From NCBI GenBank assembly GCA_022478985.1, contig JAKSZP010013308.1, forward strand, positions 62,001 through 126,000: DNA of 64,000 bases, given 5' to 3'. The DNA is from Massospora cicadina. Taxonomy: Eukaryota; Entomophthoromycota; Entomophthoromycetes; Entomophthorales; Entomophthoraceae. Positions 9,545 through 48,359 of the stretch are shown here, in pieces (the stretch's first letter is position 1; each line of letters begins with the position of its first letter). The position numbers and the translations under genes are program-made. The notes beneath the pieces were generated by a model. It was not told where the DNA came from, did not search any database, and saw only the letters and a list, made by a program, of their open reading frames with translations.

Positions 9545-10745
9545 TCAGCGCACTAACCTTGGCTCACTTAAATTTAGAGGTTAAATTGCTGCTCAGGGTG
9601 TCTATTCCACGCAGACTAAGCACCAACAACCTTTTTCTAACATCACAATTGCTCTCACTAAGAAATTACTTTTCTGATGCTACCCCTTTTAGCATTGATT
9701 GATTGGCTAAACTGTCCATACCCATGGCGAACATCTTGATGCTCTATAAATTTTTGACATACATTAGCCCTCAGGACTCATCGTGAACTTTATAAACCTC
9801 ATCCTTGGCGGTATCAGCATCAAGGTATTCTCAAAATAGAGTGTCTTATTTCTTTTTTTAGTACTAGATGGTATAGAGTGTCTTATTTCAAATTGGTCAG
9901 TCCCATACTTGTTGCTGGCGTTTACTACACTTTATACAACAAAAGTGCAAATAATATGATAAACTTATATTTTCTAGTAGAGTTTATTTAATATAAAACG
10001 TGAAGTATTTTATACTTTATGGGAAATTTAAGATATGAAATAAATGGGATATGAAATAATATAATGAAAGTTTGGGGTTTAGATAAGAGGTTTGTTCAAT
10101 ATCCTTTACTCAGACGTTTTTTGAATGTTTTTTAGCATCTGCATCCATTTAAGCTAATTCTTGTAATAAAAAGCTCCAGATCACAATTTTTACCCTTGAA
10201 CCTGTATATTCAAGGGCCTTTGTACTAGGCCCCGCTACTGGGTTCTGATCCATTGTTGCTTCAGTTTATATAAATTAATTACCAAATTTGGTAATTCCTT
10301 TATCAACATCATGTTTGAGTGATGAGACTCCTACAATGCGCCTCACATCATGGCTTTGAGTCACTATGGAAATTGGAGAATTGCTGGATTTAGTAGATAT
10401 TTGCTTTTGAACCTCAAAAACTCTTGTCAGCGTAATTTGGTTTACTTATCCTTTTTTTACCACAGCGAAATGCAAATTATTTTGGATCCCCAAAGGTATA
10501 AAAGGTTTTATTTTCTTTAGGATTTTTAGCGGTGATGTTGTCTTCATATATTAAATCTTCTATCTCAGCAGGACAAAAATTACTTCTCATGTTATTACTT
10601 CATTCTTGTTGGAAAGTATATTGCTCATAATGTCACCTTGGCATGACTAAAACTCTTAGCTCAACCTCGCCTATAAAAGGGCCTCAATTGCCCCCATCCA
10701 TGTTATTTTGGTCTTTAGTACCTCTCCCAGTTTGGATTTGTTTTT
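9545..10745 (-). repeat. 5' LTR of element A (about 1.2 kb)
   Basis: The boundary next to the PBS is clear, and the far end is inferred from alignment with the B LTR. Shared blocks include CAATTGCTC/CAATCATCC, ATAGAGTGTC, ACCAAATTTGGTAAT against ACCAGATTTGTTAAT, and CCCCAAAGGTATAAAAGG against CCCCAAAAGGTATAAAAAG near 10488. The LTR is interrupted by the micro-insertion at 9852-9872. The B LTR has a single uninterrupted copy of ATAGAGTGTC at the same place. Confidence 0.75.
9852..9872 (-). mobile_element. Micro-retroposon S, copy 1 (21 bp)
   Basis: A T-run followed by AGTACTAGATGGT is inserted between two perfect copies of ATAGAGTGTCTTATTT (9836-9851 and 9873-9888). In the sense orientation (minus strand) the insert is ACCATCTAGTACT followed by an A-run. 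The orthologous point in the B LTR has one copy of the target and no insert. This is a complete insertion footprint, with target duplication, for only 21 bp. Confidence 0.85.
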
Positions 10746-11690
10746 ACTCATTCTTCTGGTTGAGGAATGACTTGGTAAACCAGTTATGACCTCATCTATG
10801 ACAATCATAATATCCATTAGTCAGGTCAAGTATTGTTCTGCACTCATCCCCAGGCTGGTTCCACAGAAGAATACAAGATTGGCAGTTTTGAGGCTTTTAG
10901 TCCATATATGAGTTCAATTGTTGTTTTCCCTGTCACTATATGATAACTGAGTATCGTATGCAAAGGTAACTGAACCTAAAAAAGATCCACAAACGGAAGT
11001 TTTCCCTGCATATTTTTACAAAGTCGCGGCTAGAGTTCCATTGATACTAACATTCTGTTCATTTCTGGGTGGTAAGGAATGAATACCACTCCTAGGATTC
11101 CCATTTGTTCATTCTGTATTGGATCATGTAGGATGTAAAGTTGGCTCTGTTTTCACTTAACAATACTTGCGGGCATCCATGCCAGTACACTAATTAGTCC
11201 ATTATGGATCTCACCATGCTTGTAGCATTTACTCTGCTCAAGGCCCACATCTCAACCCATCTGGTCAGACAGTCTATTTTGACTATGATGTAATTTACTA
11301 TCCCAGTATTAACACTCAAGGGTCTCATAGAATCTATTGACACCGTGTGCCAAGCAAATAGGGCATACTAGCTATTATCCCATTACATTCTTGTGCGTCT
11401 TGTGGAATAAACATTCCATACAACAGGCCAGATAATCCACGAAATCATGATTGATCAATTTCCAAAAATATTACTGGTGTAAATGGTTCATGGTTTTTCT
11501 TAGGCCACCATTCGCTATTACTTTGTGTGCAGCTTGAATGATTTCCGCTCATTCCAACAGTTTAGGGAATAATTACCGTTTTCCATCAACCAGCTTGTAA
11601 AGATTTCCATTCTTTAACCATTATTCTTCACTAAAATCTTCAGCGCTGTTTGAATCTCTCAGGGCTCATCCCCGATGTTCCCTTTGATTA
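10746..11690 (-). pseudogene. Integrase of element C, decayed
   Basis: On the minus strand this gives EIIQAAHKVIANGGLRKTMN, the zinc-finger histidines (about 11555-11495), then D.LACC-like Cys codons and core remnants. These include AHGVNRFYET and SKLHHSQNRLSDQMG (about 11370-11250) and a region near 11170-11130 matching the second catalytic block in disrupted form. TGKTTIELIYGLKASKL (about 10945-10890) corresponds to the end of the core. Many stops are present. It is separated from its RNase H by the whole of element D. Confidence 0.65.
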
Positions 11691-11695
11691 CCTGC

Positions 11696-12386
11696 TGTGG
11701 GAAACCAGCTTTTTTGCTTGCTGGTGCATTCCGCCAGCTGGTTTCCTCATATATTTTCACTAAATATCGTTAAAATATAAAGCGCTAAAAAATTGGCTTT
11801 TTATGATTTTTATTATACACGCAATAAGGGGAAAAACAATGACCCTCAACATCTGACTATATAGTATTTAAAGTAATTTGAGGGTCAAAAGTAATTTAGT
11901 AATATGTTTGGAATAGTGTACATGAGTAAAAATTTAGGAAATATGCAGGAATAACATGTCATAACTTGGGAACTCACTTCAGGGCAGCGGAGCAAAGAAA
12001 GAGAAATTCTGATTGGCCCAAATGTACCTTTGAGGTAACGTTTTTATATATTAAAGCCAATCTCCACCTGAAAAATTTCTTGCACCTTAAGGGACCCCCA
12101 CCACGCCTATAAGAGGGGAGGTCCCTGCGCAGGTGCATTGGAGAGCTTTGTTGGGGTAGGGGGAGTGCCTTCCAAGGATTTCTTTAAAGTCCATGGCGAG
12201 GTCAGAGTAATCTAACCGTTGGATTTTATGTTTGATGCCTGTAGAGGTTTTGAACTAGTGTTACCACAATTAACAGAGTTCCACCAAGAATCATCCAAGG
12301 ACTTTTGGCCAATTTTCTTGACTTTGTCATTATTTATATTATTAAACAAGCTCATAACAACATTAGAAAATCACAAATGTCTGACA
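11696..12386 (-). repeat. 3' LTR of element D
   Basis: It starts TGTGGGAAACCAGC and ends ...CTGACA on the plus strand. It aligns along its length with 20179-20872 and shares, for example, AAATATAAAGCGCTAA/AAATGTAAAGCGCTAA, GGGACCCCCA and GTCAGAGTAATC. The adjacent plus-strand TTTCCTCCCTT (12387-12397) is the reverse complement of a polypurine tract, AAGGGAGGAAA, as expected next to a 3' LTR. Confidence 0.9.
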
Positions 12387-12396
12387 TTTCCTCCCT

Positions 12397-13131
12397 TCAG
12401 CATAATTTGACCCAGGACAATCTTATCCTTTAGTTGTGAGGGCAAATGTCTCACATCACCCCCCTCAGGGATGTTGGGAGGTGAGTAGGGCCGGATGAAA
12501 TGGCCATATATGTGATTAATGGTGATACCAGTAGCTAGGTTTTTGATAGAGTATTCATTTTCTCTCTTGTAGAGGATGGTGAAAGGACCCTCCCAAATTG
12601 TTACAAGTTTGCCACTTCTAGGAGTGATGCGGTTATGGTAGTACAATACCATGTCGGATACTTGGAAGGTAGGTAGGGGGGTTTGGAACTCATTTGCAGC
12701 CTGCCCTTCTTTGGTTACTGTTTTTGTTTAATTGGTCATAGCTTTGGATTGGAGTTGAACTATGCGTTGAGCCAATCTCCTCATAACTTTATCTGGTTCC
12801 TCTATCTAGAGGATAATACATCCTTAGCTAAGAGGACAGGTATGCCTGGTTCCCGCCCATACAAGACACAGAACGGAGACATTTTCAAAATCCAGTGATA
12901 GCTAGTCCATTATGCCATAAGAGCACTAGGTAAATACTGATCCCAGTGAAGAGGATCAGATGAGTCTAGTTTGCAAAGAATGGAAGCCAAGTTTCCGTTT
13001 GCCCTTTCCACAGTCCCATTTGTGGATGGGTTATATGGAGTCAAGAAGAGTTGTTGTGCTCTCATGGAAGTGGCTAAAATTTTGACTAAACTGGAGGTGA
13101 AGTTCTTTCCATTATTGCAGAGTAGTAGTTG
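12397..13131 (-). pseudogene. Integrase of element D, C-terminal half
   Basis: The minus strand carries NNGKNFTSSLVKILA, LTPYNPSTNGTVERANGNLA (catalytic Glu kept, second Asp changed to Asn) and SALMA (13120-12900). It then continues with the 93-codon open frame at 12371-12652: MVLYYHNRITPRSGKLVTIW and GHFIRPYSPP, the SH3-like C-terminal domain. The frame runs into the polypurine tract and LTR. The N-terminal half lies on the other side of element E, at 16169-16600. The plus-strand frames at 12683-13159 are shadows. Confidence 0.85.
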
Positions 13132-13136
13132 GGGGC

Positions 13137-13617
13137 TGTCAGGATTCTCCCTGGATTAGGAGAAAGCCTTGTCCAAGGGGAAAATCAATATAATCAAATG
13201 AAGGGCATAATTTTCAGATGGCCCAATAATTTTGAGAATGGAGTTTAATTCAACTAGAATGCTGAATTTGGGACTTTTCTCAATTTATGCTGAATTTGGG
13301 GAAAATGTACATTTCCTATTCATTATCTAATCTCTATCCACTCTTTATCTATTCCCACATATCCTAGTATTGAGACTTTCCTACAGGTCCCATGACACTA
13401 CCCTTAAATATCCCTATTCATATCCTTATAATCCCTATTCCTATTCTTATATTTTGAAGCACTATAAATAGTGCTAGATTATTCTAAATAAAATACTTCT
13501 CATCAGAACTTTTGTTTTATTTTACTTTAATGCAAACATCTCGTCCAAGGCTGCTAACTTCGAAGCCCTGCCTTCAGATGATTGTGCCGCCAATGGTTCC
13601 TCTCTGATGTCCCAACA
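13137..13617 (+). repeat. 5' LTR of element E
   Basis: TGTCAGG...CCCAACA. It contains TATAAATAG (13463-13471), a TATA-like promoter element, with an AATAAA-type signal close behind (TAAATAAAATAC, about 13485), so promoter and polyadenylation signals fit an LTR U3-R layout. It aligns to 15681-16163. Confidence 0.9.
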
Positions 13618-13620
13618 AAA

Positions 13621-13638
13621 TGGTGCTCCCTGACAGGT
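13621..13638 (+). other. Primer-binding site of element E
   Basis: TGGTGCTCCCTGACAGGT, three bases after the LTR. The first nine bases match the PBS of D except at the last position, and they also fit a tRNA ending GGAGCACCA, such as fungal elongator tRNA-Met. An ATG overlaps its first bases (13620-13622), as in D and B. In E this frame is open for only 12 codons. Confidence 0.75.
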
Positions 13639-13725
13639 CACTTCCGAGTTGCACATGAGGATAAAGCCTCAACCTTGGATAATGATAGTTTTTAATCCTC
13701 AGTAAGTACTCTGTACCCTAACCTT

Positions 13726-14130
13726 TTGGCATACCTACACTGGAATGGCCAATATGCAATAACTGTGGGAAATTATTTTACCAAGAAGAGCTTTAGATGT
13801 CCTAGAAGAGAAGATCCTGTACGCTTCAAAACACCAGGCCAACTCAAGCCCTTACTCGATTTAATGTATATGCCTGAAATATTTGAAACAGATGTCAAAG
13901 AGCAATATAGCCAACATCATAAAGTGAAGATATAGAAAAAGGCAGTACTTTATTATATACAGGAAGTAAAATATACTAAGGAAGAATGGGACATTGACTG
14001 AAAAGAAGCTTGGGAAAATATCACACAGAGAAATGACTACTGGCCTATAGGATGGGTTTCCCATTATGAGGAGAACTTCATTAAATTTCTCACTAAAGTG
14101 AAGCATTATAAAAAGAAACTGACCAAATGA
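13726..14130 (+). pseudogene. Element E interior: unknown protein, N-terminal part
   Basis: A 69-codon frame (13726-13935) continues in the same frame through two stop codons to about 14130. It gives a charged, aromatic-rich peptide that includes KEEWDID, KEAWENITQRNDYWPIGW and FIKFLTKVKHYKKKL. I do not recognise the family. Its position directly after the PBS fits a Gag-like protein, but no zinc knuckle is visible. A second open stretch (14127-14393, 88 codons) lies in another frame. Confidence 0.4.
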
Positions 14131-14549
14131 TGATTATATTCCAGTCAAAGAGCGAAGATCAAACAAAATGGAATACTCATAATTTAAAAACAACAAATGA
14201 TTTTAATACTAATAATAACATTTATTTAGGTGACCAAAACTCAATTCTCTGCAATGACGTCATTTTCCAGTCTGATTTAGTGAAGGAAACCAGAACAAAT
14301 TTTATTGAGTGTTTGGAGTTAAAAGTGCCAAACATCAATTTGGATGATCATTATCTGAGCAATTGGACCAATCAAGTTGGGCCAACAAGTTGAGAACTAG
14401 CTTCCAAATTTGATGAAGGCAGCAAGCTGCAGGAATTTTTGGGAAGCACTAAAAACAATCGGTGTGTCAATGCAATTCAAACGCCAGGCAAAATACCTGG
14501 GACTTACTTTCACATCATTTGGAATAAGCTTGATGACTCTTTTCCTGAA

Positions 14550-15136: not shown

Positions 15137-15680
15137 GTGAAGCCTGAGAAACTGACCAACGTTGCCTCTGCTACTGATGCCAACCTTCCAGCCCTCTTTA
15201 CATTCCCTCTCAAACCTTGTCACACAGTTTGCTTTCAGTCACAAGTGGGATTTGCTCTCCCCAATCCCAAGATGGTGACTCGGCGTCACTCAAAGAGGCC
15301 TCCCTATCTGAACCTGCAGGGGGCCACACCCTACCATCACCTGGTCACCTTCCAAGCTCATGGGGTTGCACGTCCACACTACCCACTGTTGATGACCTTT
15401 TCTCTGGGCCTTACCTGGATCTGCTGGCAGATAAGGTGATCACAAGATGCCAGGTTCAAATGGCAAACAAAATGAACCGTAAGTTTGAAGAGGCTGAAGC
15501 CCACCTGGCCAAGATGGTGCAGGAGATGCATAAACTGATAGCCCAGATGGAGGCGGAGTTGAAGGCCTCCAAGTTGGAAATCAGGCATGAGGCTCCATAC
15601 ACCACCAATCTTGAGTCCTCTGTCTACCTTAACCCTCTGGTCACAATTTACTCCCCTAGGACAAGGCTTGGGGAGGGTGT
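15137..15680 (+). pseudogene. Element E interior: C-terminal coiled-coil protein segment
   Basis: An open frame from 15217 (171 codons, running into the right LTR at 15681) has a Ser/Pro-rich start. A strong heptad-like segment follows, including KMNRKFEEAEAHLAKMVQEM and LIAQMEAELKASKLE (about 15465-15580), which predicts a coiled coil. It is followed by a short tail before the purine tract. The family is unknown. A multimerising Gag-like role is possible but is inference. Confidence 0.5.
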
Positions 15681-16163
15681 TGTCAGGATTCTCCCTGGAT
15701 TAGGAGAAAGCCTTATCCAAGGGGAAAATTGATATAATCAAATGAAGGGCATAATTTTCAGATGGCCCAATAATTTTGAGAATGGAGTTCAATTCAACTA
15801 GAATACCAAATTTGGGACTTTTCCCAAATTATGCTGAATTTTGGGGAAATTGTATATTTCCTATTCATTATCTAATCTCTATCCACTCTTTATCTATTCC
15901 CACATATCCTAATATTGGGACTTTCCTACAGGTCCCATGACACTACCCTTAAATATCCCTATACCTATCCTTATAATCCCTATTCCTATCCTTATATTTT
16001 GAAGCACTATAAATAGTGCTAGATTATTCTAAATAAAATACTTCTCATCAGAACTTTTATTTTACTTTACTTTAGTGGGAAACATCTCGTTCAAGGCTGC
16101 TAACTTCGAAGCCCTGCCTTCAGATGATTGTGCCACCAATGGTTCCTCCCTGGTGGCCCCACA
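15681..16163 (+). repeat. 3' LTR of element E
   Basis: TGTCAGG...GCCCCACA, followed by the target duplication GGGGC. It aligns with 13137-13617 with mainly single-base differences. It shares TATAAATAG near 16009. Confidence 0.9.
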
Positions 16164-17003
16164 GGGGCAACCATGACGAGTGAAGATGTGTTGATGTAAA
16201 AAGGTGGCTGTGGCATTAGCTGTTTTAGCAGGAAGAGCCACGGCTTCAACCCACTTAATGAGGTGGTCAATAGCTACTAGTTTACTTCTGTTTCCACTAG
16301 TAGACTGAGGAAGGGGACCTATTACATCTAAGCTGATGGTGTGGAACGGTTGCTGTGGGTTAGTTGGTTGATATTGGTATCAAGACTTGAAGCCAGATTG
16401 CTTCTTACAAGTAAGGCAGGCTTCCAAAACATCAACGATAGATTCCATCATTCTATCCCAGTAAAACCGATCCTTAATCCATTCATAGGTTTTCCTTGCC
16501 CCTCCGTGACCTAGGGTAGAATGTGCTTCTAAGCTAGCAGGTACATGTTCTGAGGGTCGAAGGTAAGGTAGCCATTTTGTCCCCATCTGCTTATACAACT
16601 TCCCATCTTCAACTTTAGTATTACGGGAGTGCTGGGCTAACATCTTTTGAACAGGCTCATCCTCATCCTCCCATTCACTGGGGGTCATTAAAAGGTCATT
16701 TAACCTCCCTGCCTCACTATTATCCAAGTAAAGGACTGGTAGCCGAGTCAACCCTTCAGCATTTAAGTGATGGGTTCCAGCACAGTGTTCGATCTTCATG
16801 TCATAAGGCTGGAGCTTTAGAGCCCAGCGAGATAGCCAACCAGTAGGATCCTTCATGTACTGTAACCACTTTAGAGATGCATAAGCAGTAACTACAGTGA
16901 AGGTGGTTCCATAGAGAAAATGGCGGTAGTGCTTTACAGCCAACAGAAAAGCAAGGCACTCCATCTCAGTTACACTGTAGTTGCGTTCTTCTTTTGACAT
17001 CAT
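16164..17003 (-). pseudogene. Element D: RNase H, integrase zinc finger and N-terminal half of the core
   Basis: A 207-codon minus-strand frame (16380-17003) covers RNase H (KEERNYSVTEMECLAFLLAV, GWLSRWALKLQPYDMKIEHC, HHLNAEGLTRL). It then covers a linker ending LYKQMGTKWLPYL and the integrase H2C2 finger (HSTLGHGGARKTYEWI, then CLTCKK). Past a stop at 16380 the core continues as YQYQPTNPQQPFHTISLDVI with DVIGPL (first catalytic Asp kept), AIDHLIKWVEA and HIFTRHGCP, and is then cut by element E. In RNase H the usual T-D-H-x-S-L-K-W reads T-A-Y-A-S-L-K-W, so a catalytic Asp is lost. Otherwise this is the best-preserved pol segment in the window. Confidence 0.9.
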
Positions 17004-18217
17004 CTTACTAAAATAGGATACAGGATTATCTACACCGTGTTCATCTAATTGGGCTAAGATGGCCCCAACAGTATAGTCTGAGGCATCAGTGAATAAGATG
17101 AAAGGTTTATCATAATCTGGGTGTCATAAGATATGACGTTGTTGTGATATCTGTTTCACCATCTCAAAAGCATCCTTTTGCTCAGCACCCCAACAGAAAA
17201 GGGTATTCTTCATTAATAGACGGACAAGGGGCTCACTGAGTTGGGTGAACTTAGGGATGAACTGATGGTAAAACCCCATCATCCCTAGAAATACCTGGAT
17301 ATCCCGTAGATTTTTAGGGGCCAGCAGCTTTGAGATGGCTTTGACCTTGTCCTGAATGGGCTGAATACCTTCTTGTGAAATGAAGTGTCCTAGGAAATCC
17401 AATTTTCTTTGGAAGAAAGTACACTTTGAGGGTTTCAACTTTATATTAGACTGACGTAACCGTTGGAACACTACTTCAAGTGATCAAGATTTTTGTTGAA
17501 GGTTTTAGAGAACACTGTGGTGCCAGCAAGATAAATGATGACACAAGTTAACTTGAGATCCTGCAAGATTTGATCCATCGCACTTTGGAAAGAGGCAGGT
17601 GCGTTGCACAAACCTTGGGGTAATTGTGTGGGTTAGAACAGCCCTTCACTACAAATAAAGAGCGCATTTCTCCTGATATTGAGGAGAAAGGTCCATTTGC
17701 CAATAGCTAAGTCCATGGCAGAAAAGAAATTAGAGCCTGAGAGTTGGGCCAAAGCATCATCAATATGAGAAAGAGGATAGCTATCCTTTTTTGTGAGGTT
17801 TTTTAACCTGCGGTAATCCATGAATATCCGATGTCCTCCATTCTTCCTTTTCATTAGCAATAGAGGGGAAGACCAGAGGCTTTGTGAAGGAACTAACAAC
17901 ACCACATCAAGTAACTGCTGAAGTTCTGTCCTCATTTTCTGTTCTTCCACTTTTGATTTGTGATAAGGTTTTGACCGAATGGGATGAGCATCACCCACAT
18001 GAATGGAGTGGCACCAACCCTTCATGTGGCCATAGTCGTAGTTAGATTTGGAGAATATATTACTATAGTTATTGAGAAGAATGTGAACTTTTTCCAGCTC
18101 ATCTGGGGTTAGCTCATCCGAGATATAGATTTTGGGTAAGGTACATACCAGGTTATCCGTTGGCAGGCCCATATCCATCATAGTACTAATGGAGTGAATT
18201 TGTTCAGTGTCCTCCAC
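17004..18217 (-). pseudogene. Reverse transcriptase of element D
   Basis: Minus-strand frames 18217-17633 (194 codons) and 17471-17124 (115 codons) cover the fingers, palm and thumb. Visible blocks are KPYHKSKVEEQKM, SLWSSPLLLMKRKNGGHRIF, DYRRLKNLTKKDSYPLSHID, FFSAMDLAIGKW, LPQGLCNAPASFQSAMDQIL, then KLKPSKCTFFQRKLDFLGHF and FLGMMGFYHQFIPKFT. Between them, at 17522-17533, the catalytic box reads Y-L-A-G in an open frame (IIYLAGTTVFSKTF), so both catalytic aspartates are replaced. Only a few frame breaks separate the pieces. The surrounding conserved residues are intact, which makes the double active-site change stand out. Confidence 0.9.
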
Positions 18218-18239
18218 AGGGACTAAAAAGCCTCTGCCA

Positions 18240-18930
18240 AGCTCCTAGTGTTTTTTTACAACTATTTTTTAGAGGTGAGGTTCCCCAATAGCAAAGTAAT
18301 GGGACTATGATAAGCAGGGTCAAGAATGCCAGCTAATACCCGTGTTCCAAGGGACTGACGCCCTCAATACTAATGAGGTGTAACAAACAGTGGCGTGGGA
18401 TTTGTAGCGTGACTTTGGTGTCAACCACTCGTTGTTCACCAGGCTTGATCACAACCTCATCTGCAGCATAAAAAGGGGTACCTTCTCTAGAATCCATTGA
18501 ATCAGGCAATTTCTTTTTGTAACACCCAGAAGTGGTATAAGATAAAGGTATTGCTGCGAAGTGGTATTCAACCAGGAAAGAGTATTCATGCTTACCAGAC
18601 TCTTTATTAGATAAAACTAACGGTACATCATAGTTGAGAAATGAGAGGTAACCTTGCTTCAGGTTGATTATTCCCTCTTACTCAATCATAAACTGAGTGC
18701 CGATGAGAATATCATATGCGTTCTTATCTAAAAGCCACAGCAGGGGCTGATAAAATAAGCATCCCAACTCGAATGGGAAGGGAAGTAGGCCCCAATAGCC
18801 CAGGTATTGTAGAGGCCAGCAGTTCCAAACCCTTGCGTGTACTCCAAGTCAGGCGCTAACTTGATCTTCTTGATAATCTTAATGGAGATCACGTTGACTA
18901 GGGAACCAGTTTCCAAGATGGCCAAGATAT
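18240..18930 (-). pseudogene. Protease of element D
   Basis: A 65-codon minus-strand frame (18728-18925) starts MAILETGSLVNVISIKIIKK. The family motif is ...LDTGSxVNVIS, so the catalytic Asp reads Glu here. The second half continues at lower coordinates as broken frames (about 18720-18500) with sequence that fits the flap and C-terminal strand. It links Gag (right) to RT (left) in the usual Gypsy order. Confidence 0.7.
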
Positions 18931-28729: not shown

Positions 28730-29840
28730 TATGTTCCTATATTAATAAATGAATGAAATATTTTGCGCAGCTCACAAAGCTGACAGCCATGGTGGCCTAT
28801 AGAAAACTTTAAAGCACATTTGCCAATATTATTGGTTCTCATTAAATTATGATATGACGGATTTCCTTTCTTGTTGTGTTTAGTGTCAGAGCCACTAGCC
28901 ACACAAAAATGTGTCTAGTATCAGTTAGTGCGACCAGGGTTCTCCTGGCATACAGTATCAATGTTATGAGGCCTCTGTTTACAAGCAATTGAGGAATGCG
29001 ATATATCATTGTTGCAATTGATCTCCTGACAAGATGGATTGAAACTAAAGCTATGGTTAGGCTTAATGCAATGAATACCGCAATATTTATTCTGTATCAA
29101 GTGGTATATTGGCATGGCTGCCTCCAAGTGATCCTGAATGATATTGGAAAGATCTTTAACTCCTTAGTCATACCCCAATTGATACAAGCTGATGGGAACC
29201 AGAGGAGTTGTATTGGTCCCATATTGGCTTAAATCAAATGGACTGGTTTAGAGAGTGAACGCTACCTTATCCACTATTCTAAGGAAGCTGGTTGCTTGGA
29301 AAACGTCTGCTTGTGCTTTTTACTTATGTTTAGTGACATTTTGTTATAAAAACTAGCTATCCTTTCTCAACCAGAAATTTTTTTTTCAAATTGCTCTATG
29401 GAAGAAAAGCCGCCTTACCACCAATTTTATACTCATCCTTAGATTTGTTATAAGGGGTGAGTCCTGACTAATATTTAAAATTGATTAACCAAAATTATAG
29501 TCAATTTACAATCTTAATCGTTAGAAAAACCTTAGTAACCCTTGGGTTGGGACCATCTAGTACTAAAAAAACCCCTTATTAAAAGGATCCAGGCTAAAAA
29601 GTAAGATGATAAGAAATGAAACCAATAAAAGGATTTGAATTGAGGATTTAGTCTCCTACTGTGATACACATGGATTTGGCCACCAAAATAAGCTGGATGC
29701 CTTATGGACAGGACCCTTCAAAGTAATTCTAATAATCAGCAACAGATGCCTATATGATCAAAAATATCCTCAATGGTCACATAGTTAACCAAGTTCATAG
29801 CAAATTCTTAAAAAAATTAATGCTAAAAGCTAAAGAACAA
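28730..29840 (+). pseudogene. Integrase of element G
   Basis: Zinc-finger codons AHKADSHGGL.KTLKHICQYY and CCV.CQ lie at 28770-28890. The core follows, partly in a 78-codon frame (28996-29232): MRYIIVAIDLLTRWIETKAM, VVYWHGCLQVILNDIGKIFN. In that block D-N-G reads D-I-G, so the Asp is retained. After further decay a C-terminal piece (about 29640-29830) reads LDALWTGPFKVILI, typical of the SH3-like tail. The micro-insertion at 29541-29570 lies between core and tail. Confidence 0.75.
29541..29570 (+). mobile_element. Micro-retroposon S, copy 2 (about 30 bp)
   Basis: CTTGGGTTGGGACCATCTAG followed by TACTAAAAAA. It is the same core as the other four copies. The flanks carry only an imperfect repeat (AAAAACCTTA before, AAAAACCCCTTA after, or AACCC on both sides), so the target duplication is uncertain for this copy. 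Confidence 0.65.
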
Positions 29841-31563: not shown

Positions 31564-32550
31564 ACCAGTTTGAGAATTTTCATTCTTAATAATTTGGGAC
31601 TCCATTTGTGCCAGGCCAAACAGTATAAGACTGCTGCCCTTGTTCTTTCACCATCATCAGTGATCTTTCCCTACACTTTTCGTAGGGCAACCCATCAACC
31701 CAGAAGACCAACAACTTCTCCTTCTGAGGCTTGACCACTTGATATGGCTCAGAGGTCCTCTCCTGGGACTTGTTCAACAATTGTGGTTCAGCGGCCTTTA
31801 TTGGCTCCCTCACAGGTTCCTCCCCTTCAATCCTTCCAGTTTATCATTATTTCTTCTAAATGCCCAAATTATTGCAGGGTTTTTATCCAAATAAAGGTTG
31901 TGAGTTGGTTGCGCTGAACAATCCAGGTGTTTTATTCCAGCACCTAAGTTCTGGGATCTCCAGTCTTACCTCTATCAGCTAATCTAACCTCTTTCTACTA
32001 AAAATTAATAAAGGTAAGCAAAAGAAAAAATATTTTAATTGTGTGGGAAGATAAACTATTTATAAAAATTTCTTGCTTATCTCATCATCAAAAGTCATTT
32101 CCAGCATTTTTCAGCACTCTCTTAATGACGATTCTCCCTGCTTAGCATTTGTCAGCACTCCCACTGGCAATTCTTCCTACACAACTCGTCATCCTTGATT
32201 GTCCATGATTACATTAATTTTCAATTCGCCATAATCCAAATTTAATGTTTATTATAGCATTCACCATCCTCAACATAAGTCGCTTGTGCTAAGATTGGTC
32301 CAATTAGTAATTGGGGATGATCTCCTAATGGTTTCATGAAGTTAAAATTGCTATTTAACTCTATTAATTAATATCAAATGTCTTGACATCCTTGGCATTA
32401 GTAACCAGTTTCAAAAATAAACTAAATTTATCTCAGGAGTCATTTCTGACACAACCTTGACATCAAATAATCAATCCACCACCCTAATTAATGATTATAA
32501 GTAATCAACTTTCTCAGCCTAATATGCCAGTGTCAAAATGCACAAATTCT

Positions 32551-32584
32551 TTTTTTAGTACTAGATGGTCCCAACCTGAGGGGG
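32551..32584 (-). mobile_element. Micro-retroposon S, copy 3 (34 bp), with empty site in the sister LTR
   Basis: A run of T, then AGTACTAGATGGTCCCAACC and TGAGGGGG, is flanked by perfect 16 bp copies of AAAATGCACAAATTCT (32535-32550; 32585-32600). The other LTR of H has a single AAAATGCACCAATTTC at the equivalent place (about 34047) and no insert. In the sense direction it starts with a C-run and ends in six A. This is the clearest case of a complete insertion. Confidence 0.92.
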
Positions 32585-33038
32585 AAAATGCACAAATTCT
32601 TGCTGGGGATGGTTCCCAATACTTTCTTGATCCTGCGAATCAAAACAGCTTAACCCAACCAATTGAGGAGCATCAATTGGGTTTTATATCATTAATTATA
32701 TATCAAAATTAGCAAACTAATTGGCAATCGTCCATAAATAATTAAAACACTAATTAGTAATATGCGAGGAATATCGCCTGGTTATAATTCTGTCACACCC
32801 CTTGACTTATCCAGATGATAATCCTCAATCAAGACTCCACCATTTTTGGTGGGCCAAAACAACATCAACGCAATGGTTTAGAGGTCCCTGATCCTATCTC
32901 CCACTTCCAGGAGGCGTCAGAAACCAAACGTCAAGGCTAAGGTTCCGTTGGTGGTATCCTCCCCAAAAAACAGATCCAGTGGCTTTCACCACCTCCTAAC
33001 TAAACCTCAAATTAATCAAGCAACAAACTAAAAGAGCC

Positions 33039-37337: not shown

Positions 37338-37616
37338 AATAGAGGATGGATAATCTATAGTTAGAAACTCATATATCTTAAACATAAATGAGATAAAGGT
37401 GCTAACCAAGTGAAATTAGTTTATTTTTAATACATTTCCTCCAGAAAGATACTTTCTGTAACTTGTAGCAAAATGCTGAGCTTATGAAGAAAAGGTCATG
37501 TAATTACTTTAAGCTTTAAGCCACACAAATTGTTTAGCAATCCCACTTTAGGGAAGCAGATAAATCTGATGATCTACTTTATTAAAAAAAAAATTAGCTT
37601 TGTCTTTAAAGTCTTT

Positions 37617-37634
37617 TTTAGTACTAGATGGTCA
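37617..37634 (-). mobile_element. Micro-retroposon S, copy 4 (18-21 bp)
   Basis: T-run plus AGTACTAGATGGTCA lies between TCTTTAAAGTCTTT (37603-37616) and the same 14 bases at 37635-37648. Part of the T-run can be counted to either the insert or the duplication. It is the shortest copy, so only the 3' end of the parent RNA is represented. Confidence 0.8.
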
Positions 37635-38400
37635 TCTTTAAAGTCTTTAAATTCCATTTTTTGGACTTAAAAGAAAGGATTAGGACATTTTAATCATGTT
37701 GATAATCCCGCTGACCAGGCAACTATGAAAATTCAACATATTTCTTTAGTTGCACTAATATCAATATATCTGTATATAATAGTCAACTTCATGCAATATT
37801 CGATAGTGCTCAGGTCAACGTATTCTCAAGTCATTTGTAATGAATCTAAATATAGATCTTTTTGTGGCCCGCTGTCAGTAATATGAATTGCCTGACCCAA
37901 AAATACCACTAAAAAGGAGCATATAGCTCTTTGCCAATGAGGTTTTTTCATTACAAATCAGCTCTCCTGCTATAGCGTTTCCAAGTAGCAACCAGTACCT
38001 CATAAACAGTACTAATTTTTCAAATTCTTTTGAGCTTCATCAACTATGTGATGAACTTCTTTAAGATCTTTGGTCAGTTTTTGACTTACTCTATCCTTGG
38101 AAAAATTTGTTACTGTGCACTAAAACTCACACAAACGGTGAAAACAAGATCACCCATTATTTCAAAAATTGGCTTACTTCATGCCTTCTTGAAAAATAAA
38201 AAGACCTTTGCTTACTTTCTGCCACATGCTGATGCCCCACACTTGTTTTGTCTGCTCTCACAAGTGCTTTTCAATCCATGCTAGATGGATATCCCCTGAC
38301 CCCCTTCTCTGTCCAATATGGCATCTTAATCTAAACGCTGAGGCGCTATATTGGGGATTTATATTTTATTAGACATCCCCACAAATAAAAGCTCTTGGAC

Positions 38401-38565: not shown

Positions 38566-40481
38566 ACCCTTAAATTTTTCTTTCCACTTGACATCATTTT
38601 TGAGCAATTTTGAAAAAAAACAGTTAATTTTACATGAGAACCTCACTGCACCAGTCTCCAATTTATGTCCTTGGATCCACCACCTGCTACCTCAGTATGG
38701 GGCAGCGGTGCTCCACCTGCTAGCATTTACTTCCCAGCAGGCAAACGCATGTGTACTGGATCAACCAGTCCACCAAATACATCTGGTCAATTTGTCCTTC
38801 CAAGGGACTTAGCACTACACCTTGCATGAGTCCACCCAACCCACCCCCACCCCATAACCCTACCTAGATCCACTATCTGCTTTTGCCTCTGCATTGAGTA
38901 TGGATGTCTCTTCCCATATGCCAATAAAGCGATTATTGAGCTGCAATGGTCACCTTTGCACTAGCAGGATTTAACAACTTCCACCCTTATAAGGGCTATT
39001 TTAATATTGGATTCCCCACTGAAGAGGATACAGCCGCTGCAGCAGCTACACCTTTAATATACAAAAACACATCCATTACCACCACCTGAACACATCTCCA
39101 GGATGATACCACACTAATGTTGACCTTTGCAAACCTCCCCTCACACCTTCCCCCTCAAACACTCTATGGAGGAGTTGATGTCTGGACTGTCCACTTATGG
39201 CACAGACCCTATTCTCCAATTTATTGTCCCAAGTGGTGCTGAGCGCCTAGTGGCACCTTGGGCAATGGCCACCATTACTTCCACCGGATTACCATGGCAC
39301 AGCACATCCCACCACAAGCCTATATCCCATCCGCATCTGACCATTTCTTTTGGGTTTGATCAACAATAATCACACAATTTGCCCCCTCTGCCATGAATTG
39401 ACCATTTGAAAAAATCATGTCAATACAATTCACACCCCGCTAACTTGTCTAACTCCACCCATGAGGCCACACTAACAGCATTCAAGTGGGGATTTTATAC
39501 CCTCCCACCCCTCAGGTCATGTGCTTGAATCAAAAGCAAAACCTAGCAACTCAAACCCAAGCTGGCCAATTTACACTCATGCTAACCAATAGGGTGCAGT
39601 CTTGGACTAAAATTTAATCCCAAAAATCGTCCACCTCAAAACTTGCCCGACCACAGACACATATCAGCAAATCAATCTAAGTCAACCAAAATTCCTTGGA
39701 CTTATTGAAGAAGTATCCAAATCTGGTGAAATTGTTCCACCTCTGGCTAAACCATTCGATTTAGATCCTTATCTGAATTCAGACTTTGATGCCTCACTCC
39801 CACCCAACCAATATGTCCCCAAACTCAATACTATCTCATACCAAAATGATCACCAGCTTGCTGAGGCCATGGCGGCCTCACCCAAAAAAATGCCATTGTT
39901 GCATAGTCATGGCAAAATCTGCCACTAAATTAAACAAGGGCTGCACATCACCCAGTTCCCCCTAATTTCCTGGTAGTTGCAAAAGAGGAAATTGAATGCC
40001 TTGCTGAAATTTCCACCAATGCTGTCAAGCATGTCAATGAACTGGCAGATTTTTCCCCATCCACATGTGTAACCATAGCCAACATTGAAAAATTCGCCCA
40101 CCTTCCTAATGCCCGCATCCAAGCTGAACACCATGTGGCTGATCTCATTAGGCTATGATTCAGGCCCATTTTTTTAGTTTCAATGAATATCTGCTCCGCC
40201 TCAACCCTCTTCTCACAAATGTCCCAGCCCCTTTTTTATAAGCCTTGGTCCATCTCTTCATTGTTGAAATTGTTTCAATAATCCACCTGATCCCCCCTCC
40301 CTCTCCACCATGGTGGGATAAGAAGCTCAGTGCTGTGCCACCTGGTAGATTGTTTCTCACTTTTGTGTGTCTTGCTGCTTTTTTAGGGCAGTTGGCTCAT
40401 ATTTTTGGTTTATTTTGTTCTTGAAGTTTTCCTTTTGGTAATGCCCATCCCCTGGTCAGCGTAACTCAAATAAATTTAAAT
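38566..40481 (+). mobile_element. Retroposon F, copy 1 (about 1.9 kb, no RT)
   Basis: It aligns with F2 (52181-54709) over its length and ends in the SINE-like tail GGTAATGCCCATCCCCTGGT...CTCAAATAAA. A nine-base repeat, TCAAGTTAT, lies at 38557-38565 and 40482-40490 and is a possible target duplication. Decayed coding is shared with F2: LSTYGTDPxLQFIV-SGAERL (near 39180-39250), QNLATQTQAGQ (near 39535), NARIQAEHHVADLI (near 40110-40150) and a Pro-rich C-terminus PPPSPPWWDKKLSAVPPGRL (about 40290-40350). The protein is unknown to me. I see no RT, endonuclease or LTR. Confidence 0.75.
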
Positions 40482-40490
40482 TCAAGTTAT

Positions 40491-43229: not shown

Positions 43230-44345
43230 GCAAGGGAATTAAGCATGGTGTACTCTACAATGCCTGAAGTGATGCTTAAATATGCTTGTTCTCAGCTCCA
43301 TAAGATGATTAATTGTTATTGAGGTCCATCATATTGTTGGCCATAATGGTTGAACAAAACGCTGAAGCAAGTCCATTATAGCTACTACTGGTTTGAGATT
43401 TGATATCCATGACACTTCAAAAGTTTGTCAAGAATTCTAGTCGCAACAACCCTTTAAGGTCTTTACCGCCTATCAATTAGTTAAGCCTAATTGGGCTTAG
43501 CACACAACTCAATGATGTTATCAGTACTTTACCTGTCAGTAACTTTAACACGTGTACATTAATATGGCCATCAACTACTTGACCAAGTGTGTCAAGGCTA
43601 AGCCCATTTGTAATGTCATATAAGTCACAATTGCTAAGTTCATTATTGAATACATTATTCACTAACATGGGTGTCAACAGGTTATCTTGGCGGAAAGGGC
43701 TACCAACTTTACCTCTAAGATAGCTCTTAAACTGAACGAGCTTATGGAAATTATGGGGTCCCAGATGCGCCTTTTTCTCCAGAGACTAACAGGACTGTTG
43801 GAGGTTATTGGAATTCTAGGTCAGATTCTCCACAAGTTTGCCACCGCTTTTCTTTCTCAAATGACCCTCTGAGTTGAGCCAACTATAGCCTACTACAATA
43901 TTAGTTACAATAGCTCTATGAGATTTTCATCATTATAGATATTTTATGATCAAAGCCCTCTTTGCTTTTTTGCTGCACTCTAACTTGGAGGATGAGAATG
44001 AGAACTGACAGCAGATTATTTTTATTTATTAATTAGAGCTTTAATTGAAAATAAACTGTAGCATATGGATTGGTCTCAACTCTAAAATAGATCAAAAACC
44101 CCATAATGTTCAGCACAGAGGAATGCTACATAATTTAAGGAAGGTGATCAAGTTTATACTGCAATACTTATAGATTTTAAACTCATAAAGTGTTAACATT
44201 ATGGAAGGGACCATAAATATATTTGAGCGGTTGTCATATGATTTCTATACCATGAAGCATTTGTTTAATGTGAAGATTACTAATAAATTTCAAAAAGATT
44301 TTAAGACCCTACTACATAAGTCTGCATCTCGCTCAAGGGAGTTAT
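43230..44345 (+). pseudogene. Integrase of element I
   Basis: Core text is clear: VYINMAINYLTKCVKAKPIC (43554 onward), TIAKFIIEYIIH and VILAERATNFTSKIALKLNE (about 43630-43740). In the last the family S-D-R/N-G-T-N-F has Glu for the catalytic Asp. The C-terminal part near 44190-44340 reads HKVLTLWKGP and SICLM/TMKHLFNVKITNKFQKD, fitting the tail domain. The minus-strand 66-codon frame at 43477-43677 is a shadow. Confidence 0.7.
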
Positions 44346-44367
44346 ACAAAAAGTGAGTAATTTGAGG

Positions 44368-45031
44368 TTTGTTGTGTTCTCAGATTTTTGACTCAACATA
44401 ATTAACAAAATTATTATTCTATTTTGCACTTTTCATGGTATAAAACTGTGATGAACAATCTCAATTGGTTGTAAAAGCGTAATAATGTCTGTCTCAAATT
44501 TAAATCCCCTATCATCCAACAATTGTCACACTTTATCTCATCCCTTTATAAGTTCCTCACCAAAATATGTATCACTGCACCTATTGTACCCATTGTACTT
44601 GCTGTTAAATGCACTGTCAGCATCAAAGCAATAATTTTATGAGGCTGGTTGGTCTAATGTTTTTAGTATCTAAAATTATCCTAGAAAGTATCACCTTTTA
44701 CCTAATCTTGTTTTAGCATTTATAGTTAATCCTGTCGTAGAATTTGTTATACCAGGAGTCATAGGTGATTATATTGCGTAGCTCTTCTATGAAAATTTAG
44801 AAGTAAGGACCTGATCTGGTGCATATACCTGGTGATTTAAAAAACTCTGAGAATTATAATTATGAACTCAACCTGTGCAGTAGTGTGCGTTTTTTGTGCA
44901 AAACACGCCCTTTAGTCAGTTATGTTCCATTGTAATAAGTATATAGTAAATACTTCCTTACTAAATGCGTGCATATTAAGGAGTCCTGTAAACAAGTCAT
45001 TTCATAAACCTTAAAAATGATAACCTAGCAC
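44368..45031 (+). repeat. Probable LTR ending at a PBS (3' LTR of I and/or 5' LTR of element M)
   Basis: The integrase of I ends near 44345, followed by a weak purine stretch and TGTTGTGTTCTCAG (44368). The segment runs to a clear primer-binding site at 45035. If both are right, this LTR would be shared by two elements in tandem, as at the D/D' junction. The start is uncertain. Confidence 0.4.
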
Positions 45032-45034
45032 TTT

Positions 45035-45052
45035 TGGTCCTCACTAAGGCGC
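45035..45052 (+). other. Primer-binding site of element M
   Basis: TGGTCCTCACTAAGGCGC, a variant of the shared PBS and closest to that of G. It implies that an LTR ends at about 45031 and that the sequence to the right is the interior of an LTR element, cut at 45505 by B. Confidence 0.6.
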
Positions 45053-45504
45053 CCTTCTGACATGCACCAGACGCCACAATGGGCCCAGGAATTATTGTCT
45101 GGCTTTGGATCATCTAGTGATCCCTAAAATGTGGGGTTCTTTATCTTCTCCATTATTTCAAAAGAATAGCTGGTTGCATTAGAGAAATTACCCTTTAGCT
45201 TATTTACATCACCTTACCTTGGCCCTCTGAAAATCTGGATTTATAAACTAAAAAATTTAATCAAATACCTCTACAACTATCTTCTGTTCCCATGCCTCAG
45301 TTCCACAAATCTGACAAGATGGACTGAATGCTCTAGGCAATTTAACAGTTTTTCCAAAATACCAAATAATTTTTTCTTTTACTGGGTTTCTTATTAATTT
45401 TACTTTACTTATTATTGCTAATTCAAATAAGCGACATTGAGTTGATCCTGATAAAGCCATATGCTATTAAAGAAGCTTACATGGATAACTTGGCGCAAAA
45501 CTCC
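45053..45504 (+). pseudogene. Leader and Gag start of element M, cut by element B
   Basis: It lies between the M PBS and the B LTR. A minus-strand frame (45257-45460, 67 codons) carries a CxxC pair (SCQICGTEAW) but is antisense to the expected direction. I cannot read a convincing Gag on the plus strand. Element K right of B (55536 onward) may be the continuation. Confidence 0.35.
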
Positions 45505-46710
45505 TGTCATGGATAAGGCTGCAAGTGGATCAGTGGATTATTTTTCATCTGGCGTAATAGCAGAGTTCAACCCCAAAACTGCTGAAGTGCAGGCGACTTA
45601 CCCACTTCTGATGAAGATGAACGATCCCTTTTATATATTTGAGTGAGTCAAGCCATTTATCCTACAATCAGAGTGAAGTCATACAAAAAATTTTCTCTGA
45701 CGCTTCAACAGATTTTCTTATTAATGATGACAACGTAGCCCAAAACCACTATGAAAATCGACCTCTTTTTATACCTTTTGGGGCAAAAATAAATTACAAC
45801 TCACTTTTTGACAAAATGATGGTTTGATTGAATTACCCTGACATGAAAAAGGCTCTCAAGTGAATATTACCAAGTATGGACAAAAACTAATTTTGAGAGT
45901 CATTCAATAACCAAATGTGAGGGTGCATTAAATAAGCACCATAGCACAAACCAGATGTTAACAGGAATATTAACAAATCTGGTAATTTAGAAATAACCAA
46001 AGAAGAGGCTACAACCCAGAATAGAAGACAGGAAGAAAGGGCCCCTGGACATCCAGGTTCAGGGTAATTTTCATGAGAAGAAGCTCGTGTATACAGGAAC
46101 TAAGCCAAATGGACAAAACATTGAAATAAGCTTTTAGACGCTGTCTCACTAGGGGATCCTGAAAATCCTCAATATCGCTACATAAACTCATTGTTTACTT
46201 TATTATATTCATTTTATACCATTCCTTGATTTTTCACCAGAAAGTATAAAAATTTTCACTTTTTACTTCAATAAAAGCCCTGCCACAGAATCTCAGTTTT
46301 AACCTTTTTTAGCTTATAATGTTTAGATGAACTAATCGCCAGTATCCAGTCTGAGATTAGCATATATCAGAATACAATAACCAGTCTGAGATCTGCTCTG
46401 CTTGAAAAGGACACTCTATATCACGGATACCTTAAAGCTAAGCTGCCAAGAGAGAGGTTATATTGGCTTCATTTGAGTCATGAGGGCCAATTTATAATGT
46501 ACATGTCATAAAGTTTCAACAAGTAATTTGTAAAGGGTGCAAACAGTATAACAAAGAGGCCAATGTTACAACAGGTAGCATCAATGAGAATCTGCTCTAC
46601 GAGGATGATTGTGATCTAAAGCAAATGTTGTCTGGTGCCTATCCTAGTGTAGTAGACCCAAAGCAGCTATTCAGCCTCACATGTTAAGCGAGCAGTGGTC
46701 AGCGAGCTTA
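45505..46710 (+). repeat. 5' LTR of element B
   Basis: TGTCATGGATAAGGC...GCGAGCTTA. It aligns with 51798-52180/54725-55535 (GAAGTGCAGGCRACTTACCC, AAATCTGxTAATTTAGAAAxTAACC, GGACATCCAGGTTCAGGGTA) and with the reverse complement of the A LTR. CTTTTTATACCTTTTGGGGC near 45770 on plus and its A counterpart contain a TATA-like box on the opposite strand. Confidence 0.85.
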
Positions 46711-46713
46711 CTA

Positions 46714-46731
46714 TGGTACTCATTACAGGGG
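46714..46731 (+). other. Primer-binding site of element B
   Basis: TGGTACTCATTACAGGGG, two transitions from the D site. It overlaps an ATG (46713-46715) that opens the Gag frame MVLITGAASSGLCEDHESSI. Confidence 0.8.
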
Positions 46732-47138
46732 CGGCATCATCAGGCCTGTGTGAGGATCATGAAAGTTCTATTGAGAAATTATTTAATAAAGCAAATGTAT
46801 AATAACATGAACAGGATCCCTCTGTGCTTCTGGTGAGGGATGAGGAAACAATCTGTTCAAGCCTTTATCTCCTTAAATTAGAAATGCTTGATCTATGTAA
46901 CCAGCTTGAGTGCGTTAAGGAGACCACAAGAAGAGCAAAAATTTCCTTTATATTTATTGTGAGAGGACCTTCATTTATAGCAAATCTGATGGCTCCTCTC
47001 AAGAATCCGTAGGATCAATAATATTTTTTGAAAAGAAGAGCAGAGAAAACATCTACTAAAGATTATGGATAGCACATGGAACAGTATGACAATATGCTGT
47101 TTGCAATGGACAAAAGTATAGACAATTTAAAGGCACAT

Positions 47139-47171
47139 CCCCCCTTGGGTTGGGACCATCTAGTACTAAAA
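47139..47171 (+). mobile_element. Micro-retroposon S, copy 5 (33 bp)
   Basis: A C-run, TTGGGTTGGGACCATCTAGT and ACTAAAA lie between AAAGGCACAT (47129-47138) and AAAGGCACAT (47172-47181). The target before insertion reads TTT/AAAGG, which resembles the TT/AAAA preference of LINE endonucleases. It is in Gag of B. Confidence 0.88.
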
Positions 47172-48359
47172 AAAGGCACATCTGCATACCATACCATAAT
47201 CTACCTATACTCGACCAGTAACCTGATTGGATGCATATGTTTGGGTAGCTCAACAGAAGGTCCAATGTTGGTCAGAACTGCCACACAACTGACCATGATG
47301 CATATCGACCCTTTTGAAGAAGATCAAATTCCAAAATTTACTTTAAGACCGTGCCTACACCTAAAGAAAGAGCAATTGCTGGTTTTCTCCATATTTATGA
47401 GAACAGCATGGATGGGGCTAGCTATCGCCAAAAAGGCTTTCTATGTGCTGGTTTATGAGCCGTGAGGCTCAGGAGATCCTTGGCATCAGGCTAAGACCTG
47501 GACTATCTCGAACTGAGGTGAATATTATTCTACTTTCCGAGTTCAGTAGTGAACAAGACGTCCAGGATATGAAGCAAGAGTTCCTCCTTATGAAAGATGG
47601 TCAAGCATTAGCTAGTTGCTAAATATACCTAGCGCTACTATCTCAAGGCTCAACAATTATGGACTACATAAACCATGGACTTACCTACCATGAAGGCCAT
47701 TCTGCTGAGTTCATTGGAGATGCTTCCCAACTTAAAGATGCATATGACTCTAGCAGTAAAGAGCGTAACGTCTGAAAGGCACATAAGGAAGCTTTCTTGG
47801 TAAGCAATGGACATATAAAAAAAATACTAGGCCATGGGCACGCCCCCTTGATGAGTTAGCAAGGCCATCTACGTCTCTACTAATAAGGGCAACAAAGCAA
47901 AGTAAAAGATTTCTAAACCACATGAGCGCTTGCCTCGTCAATAGTTAACCTGCAATAAATTCTGTCAACCTGGGTAAGTTTTGATCTTGTCCATTAATCG
48001 CCATGAAAAAAGTAAGCACCCCCTTAAGAGGATACTCTAACGCTGTAAGCTGGTAGGATCTCCATGCTGAGGGTAAAGACAATTTGAGGATGAGTATTAA
48101 ACTTTTACATGCTACCACGTGCTAGGGCACCTAGCGCAGTGTCTGAGCATAATATATCAAGAGTCCACAGCATTGAAGTTCTAAATCAAGAATTACATAA
48201 CTGGTGCAAGCGAATCTTACCAGATCATATATTTAGTTAAAGAAGGAGATCATCTTATTATGGATACCTTCAAGAGCTTAGTTCTTGATGGCGAGGATAC
48301 TTAAAAGCTACAACGAGTGCTGCCGCTATTAGACAGTTTTGAATAATATACTACTGACG

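What the first reader, a model, noticed from the sequence alone, without database searches (positions are those of the whole stretch)
9836..47181. Family of ultra-short retroposons (18-34 bp) with target-site duplications
Five sites (9852-9872, 29541-29570, 32551-32584, 37617-37634, 47139-47171) carry the same 3' end, GTTGGGACCATCTAGTACTA plus an A-run, in both orientations. Four are flanked by clear duplications: ATAGAGTGTCTTATTT, AAAATGCACAAATTCT, TCTTTAAAGTCTTT and AAAGGCACAT. Variable duplication length (10-16), an A-tail and a variable 5' end are the marks of LINE-type target-primed reverse transcription. The inserts are far below SINE size. They are either extreme 5' truncations of one unseen RNA or a minimal retroposon in their own right. 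Known SINEs are usually above 80 bp, so an abundant class this small would be easily missed by repeat finders.
Basis: partly seen in the sequence, partly recalled or inferred. Interest (0 to 1): 0.88.

Follow-up and report, generated by a model that had tools for sequence, protein, structure and literature searches.

The report
Micro-scars of stalled LINE insertion
The tiny inserts in this probably fungal genome are copies of the last 9 to about 50 bases of a long LINE retrotransposon, and they likely mark insertions in which the copying enzyme stalled in or at the end of the LINE's short 3' tail before reaching the body of the element.

Summary
Five sites carry the core; four of them have the four longest duplications among 392 A-runs in the window. 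Genome-wide the 17-base core has 33,302 hits against 260 for a reversed control. The parent was found: an APE-type, L1-like LINE whose ORF2 stop codon is followed directly by a 41-44-base 3' UTR ending in this core. The inserts are extreme 5' truncations of that LINE, not a separate minimal retroposon.

Their sizes are unusual. Of 110 sampled sites, 92 reach 53 nt or less. The other 18 pass 150 nt, and 17 of them run to the limit of the DNA held. Endings per base fall over 1,000-fold beyond 54 nt (one ending seen there). A spike at 42-44 nt begins at the first base after the stop codon (16 of 25). Inserts of 9-20 nt end in or just past the 3' arm of a predicted hairpin. This resembles abortive initiation followed by escape. 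That mechanism is inferred; copying of a pre-cut 3'-UTR RNA is the main rival. The genome is very probably Massospora cicadina.

The parts
9836..9889 (-). Micro-insert A: 14 nt of LINE 3' end (ACCATCTAGTACTA) plus A tail (9853-9872 on + strand), between 17-nt duplications 9836-9852 and 9873-9889
29525..29582 (+). Micro-insert B: 27 nt (CCCTTGGGTTGGGACCATCTAGTACTA, 29539-29565) plus A tail; duplication imperfect (7 nt exact; gapped 14/16 nt at 29525-29538 and 29567-29582 placed by eye)
32535..32601 (-). Micro-insert C: 29 nt (CCCCCTCAGGTTGGGACCATCTAGTACTA) plus A tail (32552-32584), between 17-nt duplications 32535-32551 and 32585-32601
37603..37648 (-). Micro-insert D: 16 nt (TGACCATCTAGTACTA) plus A tail (37617-37634), between 14-nt duplications 37603-37616 and 37635-37648
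   Evidence: missed by the script
47129..47182 (+). Micro-insert E: 29-30 nt (CCCCCCTTGGGTTGGGACCATCTAGTACTA) plus A tail (about 47140-47171), between 11-nt duplications 47129-47139 and 47172-47182; lies inside an ORF 47076-47465 that has no Pfam match

Best explanation
The inserts are A-tailed copies of the last 9 to about 50 bases of an L1-like LINE, mostly flanked by target-site duplications, and they most likely form when the LINE's reverse transcriptase starts target-primed copying but stalls inside or at the 5' edge of the LINE's own 41-44-base 3' UTR. Shown by sequence: the parent LINE carries an APE-type endonuclease, a reverse transcriptase and a weak zinc finger. Its ORF2 stop codon TAA is followed at once by ACATCGATGAATC5-8(TT/TC)(G/A)GGTTGGGACCATCTAGTACTA-An. 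Insert ends are frequent in the last 20 nt and at the first base of this UTR, were not seen between 54 and 150 nt, and otherwise lie hundreds to thousands of bases away. Inferred: the UTR folds as GAUGAAUCCC...GGGACCAUC and is the element that the LINE protein grips through its endonuclease-RT linker, as shown for zebrafish stringent LINEs (PMC4176376). Copying must pull this element out of the grip. Many attempts fail while the 3' arm is being copied (9-20 nt) or at the far edge of the element (42-44 nt). The short cDNA is then joined to the target as in a normal insertion. An enzyme that clears the element becomes highly processive. This works like abortive initiation and promoter escape by RNA polymerase.
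For: Parent and 3' UTR. Genome-wide counts at up to 2 mismatches (lower bounds by the tool's own note) fall from 33,302 (17 nt from the tail) to 9,663 (about 43 nt) to 4,157 (about 75 nt); reversed controls are 260, 129 and 10. Sample of 110 sites: 92 end at 53 nt or less. The other 18 pass 150 nt; 17 run to the limit of the held locus or of the reference copy (153 nt to more than 4.8 kb), and one ends near 506. Ends per base: 0.115 at 17-20, 0.023 at 21-41, 0.226 at 42-44, 0.033 at 45-53, 0 in 1,728 base-exposures at 54-149, 1 in 22,943 beyond 54. Spike at 42-44: 19 of 49 copies ending at 21-53, uniform-null p 2e-8. Of 25 copies under 60 nt that contain the UTR's first bases, 16 start exactly at its first base. 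Duplications: 76 of 92 real, 0 of 90 swapped. DNA not chosen by the core, 251 kb including the window: 15 sites, 7 with less than 17 nt of tail sequence, shortest 9 nt. One member of a diverged sister family is a 45-nt micro-insert starting 5 nt before its own predicted stem.
Against: The hairpin is no more stable than shuffles (z 0.11 and -0.49 for the UTR alone, -0.31 for 80 nt; sister family -0.82 and -0.61). A 126-nt stretch prefers another fold, in which the same 3' arm pairs with coding sequence (z -2.40). MAFFT does not line up the 5' arms of the two families, so covariation is suggestive only. The boundary at the stop codon is sharp, which a cut RNA template would also give, and the count of 16 of 25 cannot show starts inside the motif. 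The sampled loci were picked by an exact 17-nt core, so the apparent 17-20 peak is partly ascertainment. The ending rate beyond 54 nt rests on one event. 16 of 92 short sites lack a duplication of score 11. No protein, RNA or biochemical data were available.
Confidence: 0.6

Rival explanations
1. The template is not the whole LINE mRNA but a pre-cut or nuclease-protected RNA consisting of the 3' UTR plus poly(A). The LINE enzyme copies it to its 5' end (42-44 nt class) or stops earlier in the hairpin.
For: The 5' boundary is sharp and coincides with the end of the ORF2 stop codon (16 of 25). The sample is cleanly split into at most 53 nt and longer than 150 nt, as two template populations would give.
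Against: About half of the short inserts end at 20 nt or less (43 of 92; 7 of 15 below 17 nt), so stalling has to be invoked anyway. Extra untemplated bases, which might mark run-off, are not more common in the 42-46 class (2 of 19) than in the 17-20 class (7 of 34). No known self-cleaving RNA or other Rfam family reaches its gathering score in L048, L040 or L019.
Confidence: 0.25
2. Ordinary random 5' truncation by a poorly processive enzyme, with nothing special about the 3' UTR.
For: Extreme truncation is known: Anolis CR1 was said to have many insertions under 50 bp (PMC5389967, passages read).
Against: A constant ending rate taken from 17-53 nt would leave 0.0009 of 18 survivors at 240 nt, yet 17 of 18 run on to the limit of held DNA or reference. 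The 42-44 spike is not expected.
Confidence: 0.08
3. An independent ultra-short retroposon (SINE-like) with its own transcription and a full length of about 43 nt, borrowing the LINE's 3' end.
For: A discrete class of 42-44 nt with sharp 5' ends exists.
Against: The sequence is continuous with the LINE coding region in the long copies read, and a piece of that coding end has 4,157 hits. No RNA family matches the window at the gathering score and no tRNA was found. At 43 nt it has no room for a Pol III internal promoter (general knowledge).
Confidence: 0.04

Closest known systems
L1-type (APE endonuclease) LINE / non-LTR retrotransposon
   Same: Exo_endo_phos endonuclease, RVT_1 reverse transcriptase and a sub-threshold zf-RVT match; best solved relatives include human LINE-1 ORF2p; A tail, 13-21 nt duplications, A-rich target starts, 5' truncation
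   Different: 92 of 110 sampled core-bearing copies are 53 nt or less, with a spike at the 3' UTR boundary and no intermediate sizes at 54-150 nt
Stringent-type LINEs with a 3' stem-loop (UnaL2, ZfL2-1, ZfL2-2; PMC4176376, passages read)
   Same: Compact 3' tail with a predicted stem-loop next to the tail repeat, here an A-run
   Different: Binding of the hairpin by the protein is not tested here, the hairpin is not unusually stable, and the tail is plain A as in relaxed L1
LINE truncation classes in Anolis (PMC5389967, passages read): severely truncated (<50 bp) CR1, and L1 that either truncates early or is complete
   Same: Very short LINE insertions, numerous and easily missed by similarity searches; an early-or-complete pattern for L1
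   Different: There 'early' for L1 means below 1 kb, and CR1 truncation is said to vary with distance from the 3' end; the passages read mention no sharp boundary at the 3' UTR
SINEs
   Same: Short, A-tailed, non-coding, flanked by duplications
   Different: No separate head, promoter or RNA was found; these are the LINE's own end

Membership tests
LINE (non-LTR retrotransposon) insertions | Copies share the 3' end of an element encoding reverse transcriptase and endonuclease | tested here: met
   18 of 110 sampled sites carry at least 150 nt of a LINE whose ORF2 matches RVT_1 (7.8e-31) with an upstream Exo_endo_phos frame (3.5e-8)
LINE (non-LTR retrotransposon) insertions | Variable target-site duplication and 3' A tail | tested here: met
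   76 of 92 short sites with duplication score 11 or more, swapped-flank control 0 of 90; A-runs of 5-8 in 80 of 92 short sites
LINE (non-LTR retrotransposon) insertions | 5' truncation with intact 3' end | tested here: met
   Homology to the LINE starts at the tail and stops at varying 5' points; the shared 3' end is partly by construction, since sites were sought by the core
Stringent-type LINE | 3' UTR stem-loop required for and bound by ORF2 protein | not testable with these tools
   Only a predicted hairpin, z near 0; no binding or mobility data
Stringent-type LINE | Stem-loop conserved by compensatory change among related elements | tested here: inconclusive
   GAUG/CAUC here and GUGG/CCAC in two sister sequences folded (one with a base altered in typing) lie at the same place, but L036 would have a mismatch there (by eye) and MAFFT does not align the 5' arms
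SINE / minimal autonomous retroposon | Own body not continuous with a LINE, with its own promoter and RNA | tested here: not met
   Sequence continuous with LINE ORF2; no tRNA and no Rfam match at gathering score in the window; RNA itself not tested

The most novel reading that the evidence does not exclude
LINE retrotransposition has a true abortive-initiation phase. The enzyme stays gripped to its 3' UTR element while copying it and aborts in about 85% or more of insertions, at two checkpoints set by the element (3' arm of the hairpin, and the 5' edge right after the stop codon). It then escapes into a highly processive mode. The genome holds tens of thousands of these abortive products as a single-base record of the escape step.
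Probability: 0.5. Interest if true: 0.75.

Novelty: new variant of a known kind. Interest (0 to 1): 0.55.

Why it matters
What sets the length of LINE insertions is an open question. Here the 5' ends fall into classes that match the anatomy of the 3' UTR, and the ending rate in the sample changes over 1,000-fold just beyond it. That would make the step from target priming to processive copying measurable from genome sequence alone. It also shows that a LINE can leave most of its insertions at sizes that a similarity search with the whole element would easily miss.

Tried and rejected
Independent minimal retroposon: rejected once the LINE parent was found. Known structured RNA as parent: no Rfam match at gathering score in the window or in L048, L040 and L019, and no tRNA. 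A partial resemblance of TAGTACTAG-ATGG to 5S rRNA was recalled only and not pursued. Hairpin as a simple obstacle in front of the enzyme: not favoured, since ends lie within and beyond the 3' arm rather than before it. My first reading of a sharp 17-20 nt peak was withdrawn in part: loci selected by an exact 17-nt core cannot show shorter inserts, and in DNA not so chosen 7 of 15 have less than 17 nt of tail sequence, one of them 17 nt by its duplication. Outside the window this is 5 of 10. Ribosome at the stop codon as roadblock: rejected by reasoning, since its leading edge would give stops about 10 nt nearer the tail. A strict nick motif was not claimed: duplications were extended into the A-run, so the non-A base before them is by construction; T two bases before is seen in 38 of 67. 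Hits of 94 and 155 nt were artefacts of an internal deletion and of a locus end. The script missed window site 37619, and its 92 short rows include one tail-less chance match (L025:2145). A scan of viral contigs and a text search for the core found nothing. A protein search with a window gypsy frame gave two unnamed relatives. Literature: searches gave listings with the start of abstracts, one unrelated paper, and none. PMC9584336 was read in its first part of three; PMC10515909, PMC4176376 and PMC5389967 in passages. I found no description of LINE inserts ending at the 3' UTR boundary in these; this is not proof of absence.
Full report
Observation. The five sites are real and far beyond chance: 5 matches against 0.09 expected. 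Four have clear target-site duplications. In an unprompted scan of 392 A-runs of five or more in the window, those four have the four longest flanking repeats. The fifth (29549) has at best a gapped duplication.

Abundance. The window lies in a 1.47-Gb assembly of 16,968 contigs. There the 17-base core has 33,302 hits at up to two mismatches, against 260 for the reversed pattern. The longest contig seen, C1, is 1,107,499 bases. The published Massospora cicadina MCPNR19 assembly is 1,488.88 Mb with a longest scaffold of 1,107 kb (PMC9584336, first part of the text). Not matching exactly: the paper lists 19,694 scaffolds and 41.1% GC, while the window is 38.8% GC. M. cicadina is reported to be unusual among its relatives in having 6.3% L1 LINEs (PMC10515909, passages).

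Parent. Among the first 30 loci, five carried hundreds of bases of a common element upstream of the core. In L048 the element has a 925-codon frame with RVT_1 (7.8e-31) and a sub-threshold zf-RVT match; upstream is a frame with Exo_endo_phos (3.5e-8). Matches among solved structures include LINE-1 ORF2 proteins at ranks 2-5; rank 1 is named only RNA-directed DNA polymerase. In six long copies printed, the ORF2 stop codon TAA is followed directly by the ACAT..ATGAAT sequence and the core, which makes a 3' UTR of 41-44 nt. Named protein relatives among the 120 listed of 1,301 include Rhizopus, Mucor and Lichtheimia (Mucoromycota, recalled) at 27-31% identity, while the top named hit is annotated as a plant.

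Size classes. I measured 110 distinct sites (4 in the window, the rest in L001-L090) by how far LINE homology extends from the tail, in coordinates of the long copies. Of these, 92 end at 53 nt or less: 43 at 14-20, 24 at 21-41, 19 at 42-44 and 6 at 45-53. The remaining 18 were checked by BLAST against L048. One ends near 506 nt, and 17 run to the limit of the held locus or of the reference, between 153 nt and more than 4.8 kb. No site ends between 54 and 150 nt. Endings per base are 0.115 (17-20 nt), 0.023 (21-41), 0.226 (42-44), 0.033 (45-53) and 1 in 22,943 beyond 54. Among copies ending at 21-53 nt, 19 of 49 end at 42-44 (p 2e-8 against uniform). Of 25 copies under 60 nt that contain the first bases of the UTR, 16 start exactly at its first base and nine start 1-11 bases further 5'; copies starting inside the motif cannot enter this count, but none of the 110 ends at 40 or 41. 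Whole-genome counts agree: 33,302, 9,663 and 4,157 at about 17, 43 and 75 nt.

A caution. The loci were chosen by an exact 17-nt core, so inserts below 17 nt are under-counted among them. In 251 kb not chosen that way (the window, which was picked for its five sites, and flanks in L031-L050) there are 15 sites; ten have an exact duplication of 10 or more. Seven have less than 17 nt of tail sequence, down to 9 nt with a 16-nt duplication; one of the 15 belongs to the sister family. So the lower class is best described as 9-20 nt. In a scan that required only an A-run and an exact duplication of 13 or more, 39 of 48 hits ended in the core; most of the other nine are the same inserts read on the other strand or in another register, and none looks like a piece of this tail shorter than 9 nt.

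Insertion mechanism. Among the 92 short sites, 76 have a duplication score of at least 11; with flanks swapped between sites, 0 of 90 do. In the 67 best, duplications are 13-21 nt, 52 of them 15-18, and 61 begin with A, with T two bases before in 38. The exact nick cannot be read, because the repeat merges with the A tail. At the 5' junction, 31 of 76 show neither overlap nor extra base, 32 show 1-6 shared bases, and 13 show 1-4 extra bases.

Structure. The UTR can fold as GAUGAAUCCC...GGGACCAUC, immediately before UAGUACUA-An. In this fold, positions 9-17 from the tail are the 3' arm, 18-20 begin the apical region, and position 42 lies five bases beyond the 5' arm. A sister family has a different tail. 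Two of its sequences (L034, and L019 with one base altered in typing) fold with the stem GUGG/CCAC in the same place. L036 and L071 were not folded. One sister micro-insert (45 nt, L034) starts five bases before that stem. Against this, none of the short folds is more stable than shuffles, and a 126-nt stretch prefers another fold (z -2.40). The alignment also does not support column-by-column covariation. The hairpin is therefore a prediction.

Interpretation. Shown: these are LINE 3' ends with the marks of target-primed reverse transcription, a two-phase size distribution in the sample and a spike at the 3' UTR boundary. Inferred: the stops reflect failure of the LINE enzyme to release its 3' recognition element. 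The published precedent is that zebrafish LINE proteins bind a 3' stem-loop through the region between endonuclease and RT (PMC4176376). The main rival is copying of a pre-cut 3'-UTR RNA. Random loss of processivity does not fit the gap.

Known or new. Very short LINE insertions are known: CR1 in Anolis was said to have many under 50 bp, and Anolis L1 either truncates early (below 1 kb) or is complete (PMC5389967). What I did not find described is a set of sub-50-base LINE inserts whose ends match the 3' UTR boundary.

Noticed in passing
L019 (- strand, tail near 1978), L036 (- strand, tail near 2390), L071:1-130: A second repeat family of at least about 380 bp (75% identity between L019 and L036) ends in a similar tail, ATGCGTGGCGGCT..GGGTTGGGCACCACTAGTGC(T)A-An. 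It could be another LINE or a non-autonomous element sharing the LINE tail.
   Followed up: partly
L034 - strand near 4717: A 45-nt micro-insert of that second family with a 16-nt duplication, AAGGTAAGTTTAGTAA: the same kind of truncation in a diverged tail.
   Followed up: partly
L039:about 190-235: A 9-base insert (CTAGTACTA plus A tail) flanked by an exact 16-nt duplication, AACAATGTGGTGGAAA; the smallest insert of the family seen here.
   Followed up: yes
L029 around 1500: A 42-nt micro-insert sits inside the tail region of what looks like a copy of the second family, with duplication AAGAGCCTGGTCCTC.
   Followed up: no
window 16380-18244, - strand: Degraded Ty3/gypsy-like pieces: RT_RNaseH and Integrase_H2C2 in 16380-17003. 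Frames upstream to 18244 look RT-like by eye, but 17633-18217 had no Pfam match.
   Followed up: partly
window 13131-13617 and 15675-16163: Direct repeats 93-96% identical, about 2.5 kb apart, with other repeats between them; possibly LTRs or a nested duplication.
   Followed up: no
window 38658-39298 and 52254-53526: Dispersed repeat pair, 77-90% identical in blocks, about 14 kb apart.
   Followed up: no
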